Shown: piece after piece, positions 4,490-24,870 of the stretch
Numbering within the stretch: the stretch's first letter is position 1
Layout of the letters: each line of letters opens with the position of its first letter
Source: Henriciella sp.
GTDB taxonomy: Bacteria > Pseudomonadota > Alphaproteobacteria > Caulobacterales > Hyphomonadaceae
Length of the DNA: 45,441 bases
NCBI GenBank assembly: GCA_013213825.1
Contig: JABSQA010000007.1
Coordinates: forward strand, 1-45,441
Direction of reading: 5' to 3'
Made by a program: the position numbers and the translations under genes
The notes under the pieces: model-generated
What the model saw: the letters and a program-made list of their open reading frames with translations, nothing else
What the model was told of the DNA's origin: nothing
Database searches by the model: none

Positions 4490-6691
4490 ATGAAACCGCG
4501 TCATTACGCGGCGCTCGCCGCCGCATCTGCTTTTGTCCTGGCCAGTTGTTCAGGGTCTGAAACAAGTGAAACCGCAGCCGTTGAGGCGGAGGCGCCCCCT
4601 GTTGAAGCCGCAGTCTTCGCGGACGTCACAGATGCCCGTCTGGACAATGCGGAGCAAACGCCCGCCGAATGGCTGTCTTACGGATTTGATCGTGAAGAGA
4701 CGCGCCACTCTCCCCTCACGGGTATCTCAACTGAGAATGTCGCAGATCTCGGTGTGGCATGGACCTATGATCTGGCCACCAATCGCGGTGTTGAATCTAC
4801 GCCGATCGTGATTGACGGCACCATGTATGTGACCTCGGCATGGTCCATCGTCTATGCGCTCGATGCTGCGACCGGCGAAGAATTATGGGTCTATGACCCA
4901 GAGGTTGATCGCGCCGTTGGCGTCAATGCCTGCTGTGATGTCGTGAATCGCGGTGTCGCTGTTTACGATGGCAAAGTCTATATTGGGGTCATTGATGGCC
5001 GGGTCGAAGCGTTGGACGCTAAAACCGGCGAAGTTGTCTGGTCGCAAGTGACGGTTGATCAATCGCTACCCTACACGATTACAGGTGCGCCACGTGTGGT
5101 TGATGGAAAAGTCCTGATTGGCAATGGCGGTGCGGAGCTTGGGGTACGCGGCTATCTCAATGCGCTCGACGCGCAAACAGGCGAGCTGATTTGGCGATTC
5201 TACACGGTTCCCAGCCCAGACAAGCAACCAGATGGCGCGGCCTCCGACAGCGCGTTTGAGCAAGTCGGGAATGTCACTTGGGGTGACACAGGCGCCTGGA
5301 CCACCGATGGCGGCGGCGGCACCGTTTGGGATTCCATCATCTATGATGAAGAGAGTGACACCGTAATTTTCGGCGTCGGGAATGGCTCCCCTTGGAACCA
5401 AGCTTTGCGCGACCCGTCTGGTTTGGACAATCTTTTCCTGTCGTCCATCGTCGCAGTCGATGCCGATAGCGGTGCGTATAAGTGGCATTTCCAGACCACA
5501 CCTGGCGACAATTGGGATTATACCGCGACCCAAACCCTGATCATCGCGACTTTGCCCCTTGGCGAAGATGGCGCGGATCGGCGGGTGGTGATGCAGGCCC
5601 CGAAGAATGGTTTCTTCTATGTGATCGACGCCGCCACAGGTGAGTTCATCAATGGCAATAATTATGTGCCGATGAACTGGGCCACAGGTCTGACCGAAGA
5701 AGGCCGCCCCATCGAAGTTCCGGATGCGCGGTATGCAGAGATTCCATATCTGCAAACGCCCGGCCCATTGGGCGGCCACAATTGGCACCCGATGGCGTTT
5801 AATCCAGATGTCGGCTTGGCTTACATTCCGGCCCAAGAGATCCCACAAGCCTATGGCACCGACCCGCGCTTCCAAGATGATTCTACCAAGTGGAACACCG
5901 GCGCTGATTTCGCCGCTGGCGTCCCGCAGGTGATCCCAAGTGAAGTGTTCAAATTCCTCCGGTCTGGACTCAAGGGACGGCTTATCGCTTGGGATCCCGT
6001 TGCCAATGAAGCGCGCTGGACGGTCGAACATGAAGGACCATGGAATGGCGGCGTTCTATCCACGGCAGGCGGAGTCATTTTCCAAGGCAAGCTGAATGGC
6101 GAATTTGTCGCCTATGATGCGGCCACGGGCGAAGCTTTATGGACCCATGATGTGAAGTCAGGGGCAGCATCAGGCCCTGGCACGTTTGAGATTGATGGCG
6201 AACAATATGTCACCATCACCACGGGATGGGGCTCAGCCTATTTGCTCTCCGCCGGCGCGGTCGCGGCACCACAACCCGTTCCGCCTACCGTCGGCAAAGT
6301 TGTCACGTTTAAACTCGGCGGCGACCAAGTGATTGCAGATATCGACATCCCTCTCATCGACCCGACACCCCAAACCGCCGAATTTGGGACGGAGGAGCAA
6401 CTACAACTCGGACTGGTTCAATATGCGCGCAATTGCACAGTCTGCCACGGCCCGTTTGCCGTCAGTGCAGGTGTCTTGCCGGATTTGAGATGGTCGACCT
6501 ACACCGCCAACGCGGAGTCCTGGAAAGGTGTTCTCGTCGATGGCAATTTGCAATCGATTGGCATGGTGTCCTTTGCCGACGTGCTCTCTGAGGAAGAGGT
6601 TGAAGCCATTCGCGCTTATGTGGTCCAACAAGCCTATAATACGGAAGGCATTGATGACGCGATTGCGAGCGAAAGCGGCGGCAGTCAGTAA
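4490..6691 (+). CDS. PQQ-dependent quinohemoprotein alcohol dehydrogenase with C-terminal cytochrome c domain
   Basis: Lipoprotein-like signal (LASCSG), adjacent Cys pair VNACCDVVNRG, PGDNWDYTATQ, APKNGFFYVIDAATG, heme motif CTVCH. Confidence 0.92.
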   Translation: MKPRHYAALAAASAFVLASCSGSETSETAAVEAEAPPVEAAVFADVTDARLDNAEQTPAEWLSYGFDREETRHSPLTGISTENVADLGVAWTYDLATNRGVESTPIVIDGTMYVTSAWSIVYALDAATGEELWVYDPEVDRAVGVNACCDVVNRGVAVYDGKVYIGVIDGRVEALDAKTGEVVWSQVTVDQSLPYTITGAPRVVDGKVLIGNGGAELGVRGYLNALDAQTGELIWRFYTVPSPDKQPDGAASDSAFEQVGNVTWGDTGAWTTDGGGGTVWDSIIYDEESDTVIFGVGNGSPWNQALRDPSGLDNLFLSSIVAVDADSGAYKWHFQTTPGDNWDYTATQTLIIATLPLGEDGADRRVVMQAPKNGFFYVIDAATGEFINGNNYVPMNWATGLTEEGRPIEVPDARYAEIPYLQTPGPLGGHNWHPMAFNPDVGLAYIPAQEIPQAYGTDPRFQDDSTKWNTGADFAAGVPQVIPSEVFKFLRSGLKGRLIAWDPVANEARWTVEHEGPWNGGVLSTAGGVIFQGKLNGEFVAYDAATGEALWTHDVKSGAASGPGTFEIDGEQYVTITTGWGSAYLLSAGAVAAPQPVPPTVGKVVTFKLGGDQVIADIDIPLIDPTPQTAEFGTEEQLQLGLVQYARNCTVCHGPFAVSAGVLPDLRWSTYTANAESWKGVLVDGNLQSIGMVSFADVLSEEEVEAIRAYVVQQAYNTEGIDDAIASESGGSQ

Positions 6692-7730: not shown

Positions 7731-8447
7731 ATGCGCGCAGTCATCATTGGTGCGTCCGGGGGTGTTGGCCGGGCATTGGTCGATCACCTTGCGGCGCGCG
7801 CAAACATTGAGGCGATCCACGCATTCGCACGACAAGAATTGGATTGGGCTCATTCGAAAGTCAGATCAGGGCAGCTGGACCTTTTAGACGAGGCCAGCAT
7901 TGCCAGTGCGGCTGCATCAGTCGCTGATGAAGGCCCACCAGACCTCGTTTTTGTGGCCACCGGCATCCTATCTGAGGGGGCCGAGCTGCAGCCAGAAAAG
8001 TCATTTCGCAAACAAGATCGCGCTGCGTTTGAACGGGTCTTTGCCATCAACACGATTGGCCCCGCATTGATCGCCAAACACTTCATCCCGATCATGCCGC
8101 GCCAGAACAGGGCAGTGTTCGCGGCTTTGTCCGCGCGCGTAGGATCAATCTCAGACAATCGCCTCGGCGGATGGCATGCTTATCGCGCCTCGAAGGCGGC
8201 GCTGAACATGCTGATCAAGAATTACGCGATAGAGCAAAGCCGCCGAAATGAGCAGTTCATCGCGGTGAGTTTGCATCCGGGTACTGTGGACACGGCCTTG
8301 TCTAAGCCATTCCAGGGAAATGTCCCGGACGCGCAATTGTTCACCCCCGAGAAATCCGCAGGCGCGATGCTGGACGTGATCGATCAGCTCACGCCTGCTG
8401 ATTCTGGAAACAGTTTTGATTGGGCCGGTAAACCGATCCCGGCCTAG
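7731..8447 (+). CDS. SDR family oxidoreductase (C-factor-like)
   Basis: N-terminal VIIGASGGVGRALVDHL; YRASKAALNML active-site motif; HPGTVDTALSKPF. Confidence 0.9.
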   Translation: MRAVIIGASGGVGRALVDHLAARANIEAIHAFARQELDWAHSKVRSGQLDLLDEASIASAAASVADEGPPDLVFVATGILSEGAELQPEKSFRKQDRAAFERVFAINTIGPALIAKHFIPIMPRQNRAVFAALSARVGSISDNRLGGWHAYRASKAALNMLIKNYAIEQSRRNEQFIAVSLHPGTVDTALSKPFQGNVPDAQLFTPEKSAGAMLDVIDQLTPADSGNSFDWAGKPIPA

Positions 8448-8923
8448 GCACCGCCAAGATTGGCGAGCACATCTGACGCGTCATAAGCATTCGGATCGTC
8501 CGGCTTCGGTCCGGGCGCGGTGACGATTTCCATCACATGCTCGACCGGGCCAGATGAACCCCCGCCCAGCGGTAGAGAAATCCCAACGCCTAAACCGACA
8601 CTGGACCGACCGCCAGACCCCGTCGCGCCGCCGACGGAGACGGAAGTCCCGCTGCCGCCAGCAAGTTCGCCTGTGTCACTATAAGCCGTGACGATTTGGA
8701 ACCAGTCATCACCTTTCTCTAGCGTGATCTCCGCGGCCCGACGCAATGCACGGCTACGGGCGAGATCCATAGAACTGTCCGTGTACGTGATACGGAACCG
8801 GTTATTCTCAATCGGCAGGACTGTGTAGCCTTTAGCGCCATCATTGGCGGCAGGGCCATACGGGGCGCTGGTGGCGCACGCGCCGAGCAAAACCAGTGCA
8901 GAAGCTGCGAGCCAAGTTTTCAT
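8444..8923 (-). CDS. CC0125/CC1285-like lipoprotein
   Basis: Lipobox LLGACA; YGPAANDGAKGYTVLPIENNRFRITYTDSSMDLARSRALRRAAEITLEKGDDWFQIV. Confidence 0.7.
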   Translation of the reverse strand: MKTWLAASALVLLGACATSAPYGPAANDGAKGYTVLPIENNRFRITYTDSSMDLARSRALRRAAEITLEKGDDWFQIVTAYSDTGELAGGSGTSVSVGGATGSGGRSSVGLGVGISLPLGGGSSGPVEHVMEIVTAPGPKPDDPNAYDASDVLANLGGA

Positions 8924-9216
8924 GATCGTCTCCCTCCTCAGGTTAATCCCATTAAGCCACGTCAGAATGAACCTGAACAGAACACAACTCAGGATGAACG
9001 CCCACCAACACATTACAACGAGTTCATTCAGCTAGGGGTGTTTATGAATGAACACAGGACGGGGGGCAGACATAGTGGTCGCAGCCACTCTCATCTGCAG
9101 GCGTCCGACCGCGAAAACTCAAAGCGCTGGTACGTAGGCGCATTCAGTTTTACGCGCAGGTGCCGCCTCGGTGCGGCACACGAGCGGGCGGCGTCTTAAA
9201 GGGGAGCGTCGCCCGT

Positions 9217-23012: not shown

Positions 23013-23082
23013 CTCATTCTACCTTTCCAGCCGCGTGTATCAGCATGCAGCGGGCGTTTCTGCAAGCGCTGAACACAAACAA

Positions 23083-23112
23083 AAAGGCGCTGCGGAATGC
23101 CGCAACGCCTTC
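23083..23112 (-). terminator. Candidate intrinsic terminator of the minus-strand repeat-protein gene
   Basis: AAGGCG(C)TGCGG-AATG-CCGCA(A)CGCCTT stem followed on the minus strand by TTTTTGTTTGTG. Confidence 0.7.
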
Positions 23113-23182
23113 TCGTAGCAACCAGCTCCTTTAACAGAGCCTGGAGGAACGAACCGACATGGGTGACGCCGGTCCGAACTGA

Positions 23183-24586
23183 TTACTCGCAGTTACACGA
23201 TTGACCGATGTTCAGAACCACCAAGCTGGCACGCACCGTTTCGTAACGGGTCGGGCTGGTAATGGTCTCAGTCTTCGCATTGATTTTACGAACTTCAATC
23301 GGCTGAACGATGGTGCGTACAACCGGCTGATAGATATCGCGGTGAGTCACGGCTTCGAAATAGGTTTCAGAGCGTTCTTCCTGATACTCTTCCGTCACTT
23401 GCGGGATATAGTTGACGACCGTGTCAGGGACGTGCACACGCTCAACTTTTCCAGCCAGCGTCTCGGTTTCGTAACGCGTGGCGCGGGTTTCGGTTTCAAC
23501 GCGGCCTTTCAGAACCTCATTCACAACCGGCTGGATCGTGGTGACCACAACAGGCTGAACGACATTGCGCGTGACATTGTCGATATAAACGTCTTCGACC
23601 TCTAGAATGGTCCGCTCGGTCAGGCGCGGCGTAATATTCTCAACCACACGCGGAGCTTCTTCAATTTCCAAGCGCTTCGGTAGACGCTCTTCTTCGTAGC
23701 GGGTCGCCTCAGTGATGGTTTCTGTGGTGCCACGCAGAATCTGACGCTCAATCGGTTGGATCGTGGTGATCGTTTTCGGCTTATAGATGTTGCGGGTCGC
23801 GGTGTATGGAATGACCTTTTCCGTCAATTGCTCTTCAGTGATGGTGGTCACGTCTTCCGTCACCGTCTCAACCGTTGCTGGAATGACGACCGTGTTGCGC
23901 TGAACTGGCGCGGTCCGTGTTTCATAGCGAATTTCATTGGTCACAGTTTCCGTCACCGGACGGACAATGCGACGCTGGACCGGAACAACCGTCGTGCGCT
24001 CAATCGGTTGAATGATTTCACGGCGCGTAATCACATCATAATAGGTCTCGGTGACTTCATCACGCGTTTCAGTGGTGACCTGAGGGATGTAATTCTCGAC
24101 CACGGCTGGCACGTCATCACGGACATATTGCGTGTCGAGGCGGCGCGTCTCATAGACCCGATCTTTCGTAATGTCTTCGACCGACCCTTGCAGCACTTCG
24201 CGTGTGATCGGCTGAATCAGTGTCCGCTGCACCGGCTGAGTAATCTCGCGGCGCGTTACGGCGTCGATATATTCGGTGGTTTCTTCAATCTCAGTGCGCG
24301 TCTCAACTTGCTCGTCGACATTCTCACAGCACATGATTGTTTCGATCGCGGTCTGCGAGCCGCCCATATAGCGCACATCTGGATTCGAGCCATCAGCGCC
24401 CGACTGGGCAATGATTTTGCGGATTTCATCATCGGTGAGGGCGCGCTCAGAGGTCGCGGAACCCGAGGCCGAGTAGCGTTCCCCCGCCGCCTGGCCATCC
24501 CAGCTATTTTTATCTCCGTCTGCGAAGGCCGACATCGGCAGCAGCAAGGCGGCCGCACCGATGGTGATCGACTTAGACAATTTCAT
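23183..24586 (-). CDS. Secreted tandem-repeat protein: five ~76-aa Thr/Glu/Val/Arg-rich repeats, Cys-flanked
   Basis: 467 aa from refined start MKLSKSITIGAAALLLPMSAFADGD (signal peptide). Repeats at residues 94-169, 170-245, 246-321, 322-396, 397-467. Cys only at 86, 87, 464, 466. Confidence 0.85.
   Translation of the reverse strand: MKLSKSITIGAAALLLPMSAFADGDKNSWDGQAAGERYSASGSATSERALTDDEIRKIIAQSGADGSNPDVRYMGGSQTAIETIMCCENVDEQVETRTEIEETTEYIDAVTRREITQPVQRTLIQPITREVLQGSVEDITKDRVYETRRLDTQYVRDDVPAVVENYIPQVTTETRDEVTETYYDVITRREIIQPIERTTVVPVQRRIVRPVTETVTNEIRYETRTAPVQRNTVVIPATVETVTEDVTTITEEQLTEKVIPYTATRNIYKPKTITTIQPIERQILRGTTETITEATRYEEERLPKRLEIEEAPRVVENITPRLTERTILEVEDVYIDNVTRNVVQPVVVTTIQPVVNEVLKGRVETETRATRYETETLAGKVERVHVPDTVVNYIPQVTEEYQEERSETYFEAVTHRDIYQPVVRTIVQPIEVRKINAKTETITSPTRYETVRASLVVLNIGQSCNCE
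23186..24307 (-). repeat. Five degenerate in-frame protein repeats (about 228 bp each)
   Basis: Manual alignment: unit lengths 76, 76, 76, 75, 71 aa; (R/V)YE(T/E) at repeat position 51 in four units and 50 in the fifth; recurrent QPxxRTxxQPI. Confidence 0.85.
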
Positions 24587-24836
24587 ATTCTTTACCCCTT
24601 TTAAGCGGCTCTCGAAGCCACTTACTTTTACGCAATGCCAGCCCGCCCGATCTATTTCGGGACAGTTGCACGGCTTGACGCAAATCGCGCGCCATCTGTT
24701 TCGTATATGAAATGAAACACGAGATTCCAATTGGATTCCCGCGACGGGAGAAAAATCCACCGCCTTTTTAGACGGTTAGGGCCTTAAGAGGTTTGCCATG
24801 CCGCGTCCCGCATTTCGGAATTTTTCTTCAGAATAG

Positions 24837-24870
24837 AAAAAAGCCCCGCTCAATGAGCGAGGCTTTTTGA
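24837..24870 (-). terminator. Intrinsic terminator downstream of rplS
   Basis: AAAAAAGCCCCGCTCAATGAGCGAGGCTTTTT; GCCTCGCTC-ATT-GAGCGGGGC stem with T tract on the minus strand. Confidence 0.85.

What the first reader, a model, noticed from the sequence alone, without database searches (positions are those of the whole stretch)
23183..24586. Secreted protein made of five ~76-aa repeats: possible bacterial alveolin/CRM-like filament protein
Seen: a signal peptide, a ~70-aa linker, then five tandem repeats of 76, 76, 76, 75 and 71 aa filling the rest of the protein. The shared pattern is roughly VTExxxEExxExYxDxVTRRxIxQPVxRTxIQPIxREVLxGxxExITxxTRYETExLxxxxxxxxVPxVVENYIPQ. It is very rich in T/E/V/R, with Pro about every 10-12 residues in the core. 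Knowledge: alveolins and charged-repeat-motif proteins of eukaryotic pellicles are built from comparable charged/V/P repeats, and bacterial CRM-like proteins have been proposed. Inference: a periplasmic or surface structural protein, possibly a coat, stalk or matrix element.
Basis: partly seen in the sequence, partly recalled or inferred. Interest (0 to 1): 0.75.

Follow-up and report, generated by a model that had tools for sequence, protein, structure and literature searches.

The report
Secreted five-repeat protein with cysteine caps
A marine bacterium (Henriciella and near relatives) makes an uncharacterised exported protein of five near-identical-length repeats with a pair of cysteines at each end of the array, most likely a rod- or fibre-like envelope component; it is not detectably related to the alveolins of eukaryotes.

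Summary
On the minus strand, 23183-24586 encodes a 467-aa protein with a Sec signal peptide, a 70-aa linker and five tandem repeats (76, 76, 75, 76, 72 aa). The repeat signal is far above shuffles. The gene is single-copy, between rplS and leuC, under strong purifying selection. As far as sampled it is confined to Hyphomonadaceae: Henriciella (19 of 29 genomes), Ponticaulis, and one genome in each of two other genera. It matches no Pfam, NCBIfam, PHROG or PDB entry.

New here: a CC just before the array and a CxC just after it are invariant, with no cysteine between them in any ortholog. Their spacing is exactly 378 residues in 26 of 28 distinct orthologs, 379 in one, and 302 (one 76-aa repeat less) in a four-repeat variant. 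Inside the repeat the sub-period is 8, with hydrophobic residues every 4.

Membership in alveolins/articulins is not supported: no IMCp match, no 12-aa period, no profile similarity to Caulobacter articulin-like proteins. Best guess: a disulfide-capped, length-defined fibrous envelope protein. Structure prediction was not robust (pLDDT 76.5 for this protein, 35 for the four-repeat ortholog), so the fold remains open.

The parts
23183..24586 (-). whole gene, 467-aa exported repeat protein (P0001)
   Evidence: ORF; dN/dS well below 1; orthologs
24595..24600 (-). ribosome-binding-site-like AAGGGG upstream of the ATG
   Evidence: sequence
24521..24586 (-). Sec-type signal peptide, residues 1-22 (cut inferred after AFA)
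   Evidence: sequence; conserved in orthologs; no signal-peptide program was available
24311..24520 (-). linker, residues 23-92, ending in the CC(E)NVEEQ cap
24326..24331 (-). invariant vicinal cysteines C86-C87
   Evidence: invariant in alignments A1 and A2
24083..24310 (-). repeat 1 (76 aa)
   Evidence: repeat profile match
23855..24082 (-). repeat 2 (76 aa)
23630..23854 (-). repeat 3 (75 aa)
23402..23629 (-). repeat 4 (76 aa)
23186..23401 (-). repeat 5 (72 aa), its last part replaced by the conserved RASLVVLN(I/V)GxxCxC cap
23189..23197 (-). C-terminal CxC, C464 and C466
   Evidence: invariant
24838..24868 (-). terminator-like hairpin after rplS, upstream of this gene
   Evidence: 14-pair stem plus T-run
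23079..23116 (-). terminator-like hairpin after this gene, before leuC
   Evidence: 17-pair stem plus T-run

Best explanation
A secreted, non-enzymatic structural protein. Shown: a signal peptide, five repeats, an invariant CC before the array and CxC after it, no other cysteines in between, and an array length that stays constant between genera. The gene is accessory, because close relatives lack it, so it gives a conditional rather than essential envelope or matrix property.
For: Signal peptide conserved in orthologs. Four cysteines flanking the array and none inside it in every ortholog. CC-to-CxC distance 378 in 26 of 28 distinct orthologs down to about 50% identity, and 302 = 378 - 76 in the four-repeat variant, so length changes by whole repeats and small indels in the array are almost absent, as expected of a register-dependent fold. 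Each repeat keeps its positional identity: 60 of 60 best matches outside the own protein are to the same position, and 31 of 35 between genera. Hydrophobicity period of exactly 4.0 and lag-8 sub-repeats. dN 0.12-0.20 with dS near saturation, or 0.009 against 0.27 in a close pair. Terminator-like hairpin on each side. No enzyme family match. AlphaFold2 of the window protein: strand-rich, one about 54-residue strand per repeat, mean pLDDT 76.5.
Against: The structure prediction is weak: pTM 0.36, and the four-repeat ortholog gave mean pLDDT 35 and did not reproduce the long strands; only a short hairpin near repeat positions 52-64 appears in both. Foldseek finds nothing credible. Disulfides, polymerisation and localisation are untested. 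CC and CxC could equally bind a metal or close the molecule on itself. No assembly or secretion gene was seen next to it, and the neighbourhood differs between genera.
Confidence: 0.45

Rival explanations
1. A monomeric periplasmic protein whose N and C caps are joined in the same molecule by CC-CxC disulfides, or jointly bind a soft metal (Cu, Zn, Hg); the repeats are a spacer or scaffold rather than a polymer subunit.
For: Same cysteine conservation. CC and CxC are common metal-ligand motifs (general knowledge). Fixed spacing also suits an intramolecular link.
Against: The four-repeat variant keeps both caps despite losing one repeat, which an exact intramolecular geometry might not tolerate. 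No metal-handling neighbours seen.
Confidence: 0.25
2. A surface adhesin or biofilm-matrix protein in which the repeats carry ligand-binding faces.
For: Exported repeat protein in marine Hyphomonadaceae, a family of often surface-associated bacteria (general knowledge); accessory distribution.
Against: No adhesin family match, no anchor or outer-membrane translocation domain found, and a constant repeat number, whereas surface adhesin repeats usually vary in number.
Confidence: 0.15
3. A bacterial member of the alveolin/articulin/epiplastin superfamily, built from charged V/P repeats, acquired from or ancestral to the eukaryotic proteins.
For: Charged V/E/R/P-rich, probably beta-rich repeats; articulin-like proteins have been reported in Caulobacter of the same order (PMC6212826, PMC4303705); some alveolins have cysteine motifs at both ends (PMC5223771).
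Against: No IMCp match, period 8/76 instead of 12, no profile similarity to the Caulobacter proteins, exported location.
Confidence: 0.04
4. A disordered, highly charged envelope stress or spacer protein without a defined fold.
For: Low-complexity T/E/V/R composition; AlphaFold2 fails on the four-repeat ortholog.
Against: Near-absence of indels over 378 residues, strong purifying selection, and V/I/Y content and period-4 pattern are unlike disordered spacers.
Confidence: 0.11

Closest known systems
Alveolins / articulins / epiplastins (Pfam IMCp, PF12314)
   Same: Charged, V/E/R(K)/P-rich tandem repeats, probably beta or extended; some apicomplexan alveolins also carry cysteine motifs at both ends (PMC5223771)
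   Different: 76-aa units with 8-aa sub-period instead of 12-aa; no IMCp match; exported with a bacterial signal peptide; restricted to Hyphomonadaceae in the genomes sampled
Caulobacter articulin-like proteins (L057, L058; IMCp-positive)
   Same: Same order Caulobacterales, signal-peptide-like N terminus, charged V-rich repeats, cysteines towards the C terminus
   Different: VEKxVYVDRPV-type repeats, glycine- and cysteine-rich tail, no 76-aa unit, no significant alignment
Curli CsgA and Fap FapC functional amyloids
   Same: Exported tandem-repeat beta proteins; among the top Foldseek rows, though insignificant
   Different: E 0.02-0.07 with TM-score <= 0.08, other composition (Q/N/G-rich, general knowledge), linked secretion genes not seen next to this gene

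Membership tests
Alveolin/articulin (IMCp, PF12314) | match to the IMCp profile | tested here: not met
   no match in own genome at E <= 10, not among the families listed for 22 orthologs at E <= 1; the model does hit Caulobacterales proteins, so the test works
Alveolin/articulin (IMCp, PF12314) | tandem repeats of 12-residue periodicity (PMC4303705) | tested here: not met
   lag 12 z = 0.2 (profile) and 1.5 (sequence); lag 8 z = 4.6 and 5.0; lag 76 z = 13
Alveolin/articulin (IMCp, PF12314) | charged, V/P-rich composition | tested here: met
   E 12.4, V 12.0, R 9.2, P 5.1%; shared by composition only
Alveolin/articulin (IMCp, PF12314) | membrane-skeleton location beneath a membrane | not testable with these tools
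   signal peptide points to export; plateins of ciliates also have signal peptides (PMC4303705)
Caulobacter articulin-like proteins | sequence or profile similarity | tested here: not met
   BLASTP 20.8 bits; hhalign probability 2.4% over the signal peptide only and 0.1% for the repeat; only two Caulobacterales sequences were in that profile
Functional amyloid (curli/Fap) | structural similarity to CsgA/FapC | tested here: inconclusive
   Foldseek probability <= 0.03, TM-score <= 0.08, but the model itself is of limited confidence
Functional amyloid (curli/Fap) | fibre formation | not testable with these tools
   needs purified protein

The most novel reading that the evidence does not exclude
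An undescribed class of bacterial envelope fibre in which a rod of fixed length (378 residues between cysteine pairs, changing only by whole 76-aa repeats) is joined end to end by double disulfides between a CC cap and a CxC cap, a bacterial convergent analogue of the alveolin-type meshwork.
Probability: 0.2. Interest if true: 0.7.

Novelty: new variant of a known kind. Interest (0 to 1): 0.42.

Why it matters
If the inferred mechanism is right, this is a simple, single-gene, length-defined disulfide-linked fibre that could be expressed in a laboratory strain and used to study how repeat rods set a distance in the Gram-negative envelope. It also bears on the claim that alveolin-like proteins occur in bacteria of this order: here a look-alike by composition fails the sequence tests, and the Caulobacterales articulin-like proteins examined carry signal-peptide-like N termini, so neither needs to be a cytoplasmic membrane skeleton.

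Tried and rejected
Alveolin membership. Pfam hits of single orthologs (AceK_regulatory, WH_DRP at 3.3e-6, Ribosomal_L9_C): mutually unrelated families, none reaching its cut-off in the window protein; treated as composition artefacts. Phylum-wide repeat hit G732: a 36-aa match in a 346-aa protein with an IVQPVVQTIVQPVVEPVVEPV stretch, low complexity, rejected. Link to the stalk (prosthecae): no usable evidence found in the papers. Operon partner: none, as neighbours differ between Henriciella (rplS/leuC), Ponticaulis and others and terminator-like hairpins flank the gene. Mobile element: no match in plasmids or phages; the viral-contig scan failed twice with a machine error, so that collection was not searched. 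Three-repeat alignment A5 for folding was dropped because the aligner shifted the rows by one repeat.

Full report
Observation. The ORF lies on the minus strand at exactly 23183-24586 and encodes 467 aa. It begins with a typical Sec signal peptide and has an AAGGGG ribosome-binding-like site. After a 70-aa linker come five repeats of 76, 76, 75, 76 and 72 aa. Self-comparison peaks at lags 76 and 227, with means 0.97 and 1.59 against a shuffle maximum of 0.07.

Origin and distribution. Named relatives place the genome in or beside Henriciella, family Hyphomonadaceae. Orthologs occur once per genome in 19 of 29 genomes of the genus, in 28 of 105 genomes and 4 of 10 genera of the family, and in only 2 of 54 genera in a sample of the order. 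A class-wide sample of 338 genomes and a phylum-wide sample of 399 gave no believable match outside the family. These were samples, so rarer distant relatives are not excluded. In the ten Henriciella genomes without the gene, rplS is still present; in several of them rplS is followed almost directly by leuC, in others by unrelated ORFs, and five of them have an rplS product 98-99% identical to the window's. The gene is therefore accessory. It sits between rplS and leuC in the Henriciella loci examined, but elsewhere in Ponticaulis and others. Terminator-like hairpins lie on both sides, so it is probably its own transcription unit. No plasmid or phage record matched.

Selection. Amino-acid changes are rare relative to silent changes (dN 0.009 against dS 0.27 in one close pair; dN 0.12-0.20 with dS near saturation against the window), so the protein is very likely made and kept by selection in its carriers.

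All orthologs have a CC just before the array and a CxC just after it, with no cysteine between; a few carry an extra cysteine in the signal peptide or after the CxC. The distance CC to CxC is 378 in 26 of 28 distinct sequences, 379 in one, and 302 in the four-repeat variant, that is, exactly one 76-aa repeat less. The linker and the tail do vary in length. Repeats match the same position in other species: 60 of 60 overall, 31 of 35 between Henriciella and Ponticaulis. So the five-repeat array was probably fixed before these genera split and has not been homogenised since. Within the repeat, hydrophobic residues recur every 4.0 residues (no permutation of 2000 reached it; amplitude 0.81 against a shuffle maximum of 0.55) and QP motifs every 8 (lag-8 z about 5).

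Structure. AlphaFold2 with 21 orthologs gave mean pLDDT 76.5, pTM 0.36, with one about 54-residue strand per repeat and a short hairpin after it. A replicate with the four-repeat ortholog as query failed: mean pLDDT 35.2, pTM 0.19, long strands mostly absent, the short hairpin retained. The long-strand picture is therefore a lead, not a result. Foldseek against PDB and viral libraries gave no significant match.

Known families. No match in Pfam, NCBIfam, PHROGs or PDB sequences for the window protein, none in PDB for the repeat profile. For the alveolin idea I tested the IMCp profile directly: nothing in the genome, not listed for 22 orthologs, while the same profile does hit Caulobacterales articulin-like proteins. 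Such proteins were reported before in Caulobacter (Al-Khattaf et al., PMC4303705; Goodenough et al., PMC6212826). Their sequence does not align with ours. The double-ended cysteine motif recalls Plasmodium IMC1a (PMC5223771), where it is thought to be palmitoylated; an exported bacterial protein would instead meet an oxidising periplasm, so I read this as analogy only.

Mechanism. Shown: export signal, repeat array, cysteine caps, fixed spacing, constraint, accessory single gene. Inferred: extended beta-rich rod, disulfide joining of caps, fibre or mesh in the envelope. I put 0.45 on the structural disulfide-capped reading, 0.25 on an intramolecular or metal-binding variant, 0.15 on an adhesin or matrix role, 0.11 on a disordered spacer and 0.04 on true alveolin kinship.

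Novelty and interest. The family appears undescribed in the libraries searched, but the kind (lineage-specific exported repeat protein, probably structural) is common. The exact cysteine-to-cysteine ruler is the unusual and testable part.

Noticed in passing
L057:991-2088 (-), L058:1144-2199 (+): Caulobacterales articulin-like (IMCp-matching) proteins begin with a signal-peptide-like stretch (MISxKTLCRLGAATLAALSLSAAPxLADG) and have a Gly/Cys-rich tail; if exported they cannot be a cytoplasmic membrane skeleton as proposed by analogy with eukaryotes.
   Followed up: partly
L046:6001-7173 (same gene as L020-L023): Natural four-repeat ortholog: one whole 76-aa repeat missing, both cysteine caps kept.
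   Followed up: yes
L101-L110 (rplS-leuC interval in genomes lacking the gene): The rplS-leuC gap is variable: nearly empty in several genomes, holding an AraC-like regulator ORF in L102 (by reading) and other small ORFs elsewhere.
   Followed up: partly
window 4490-6691 (+): Secreted quinoprotein-dehydrogenase-like protein with a C-terminal CxxCH cytochrome motif, by reading of the translation.
   Followed up: no
window 8444-9013 (-): Small predicted lipoprotein (LLGACATS lipobox) without a Pfam match; a similar-looking lipoprotein lies in the Ponticaulis loci L038 (11604-12125) and L042 (11612-12127).
   Followed up: no
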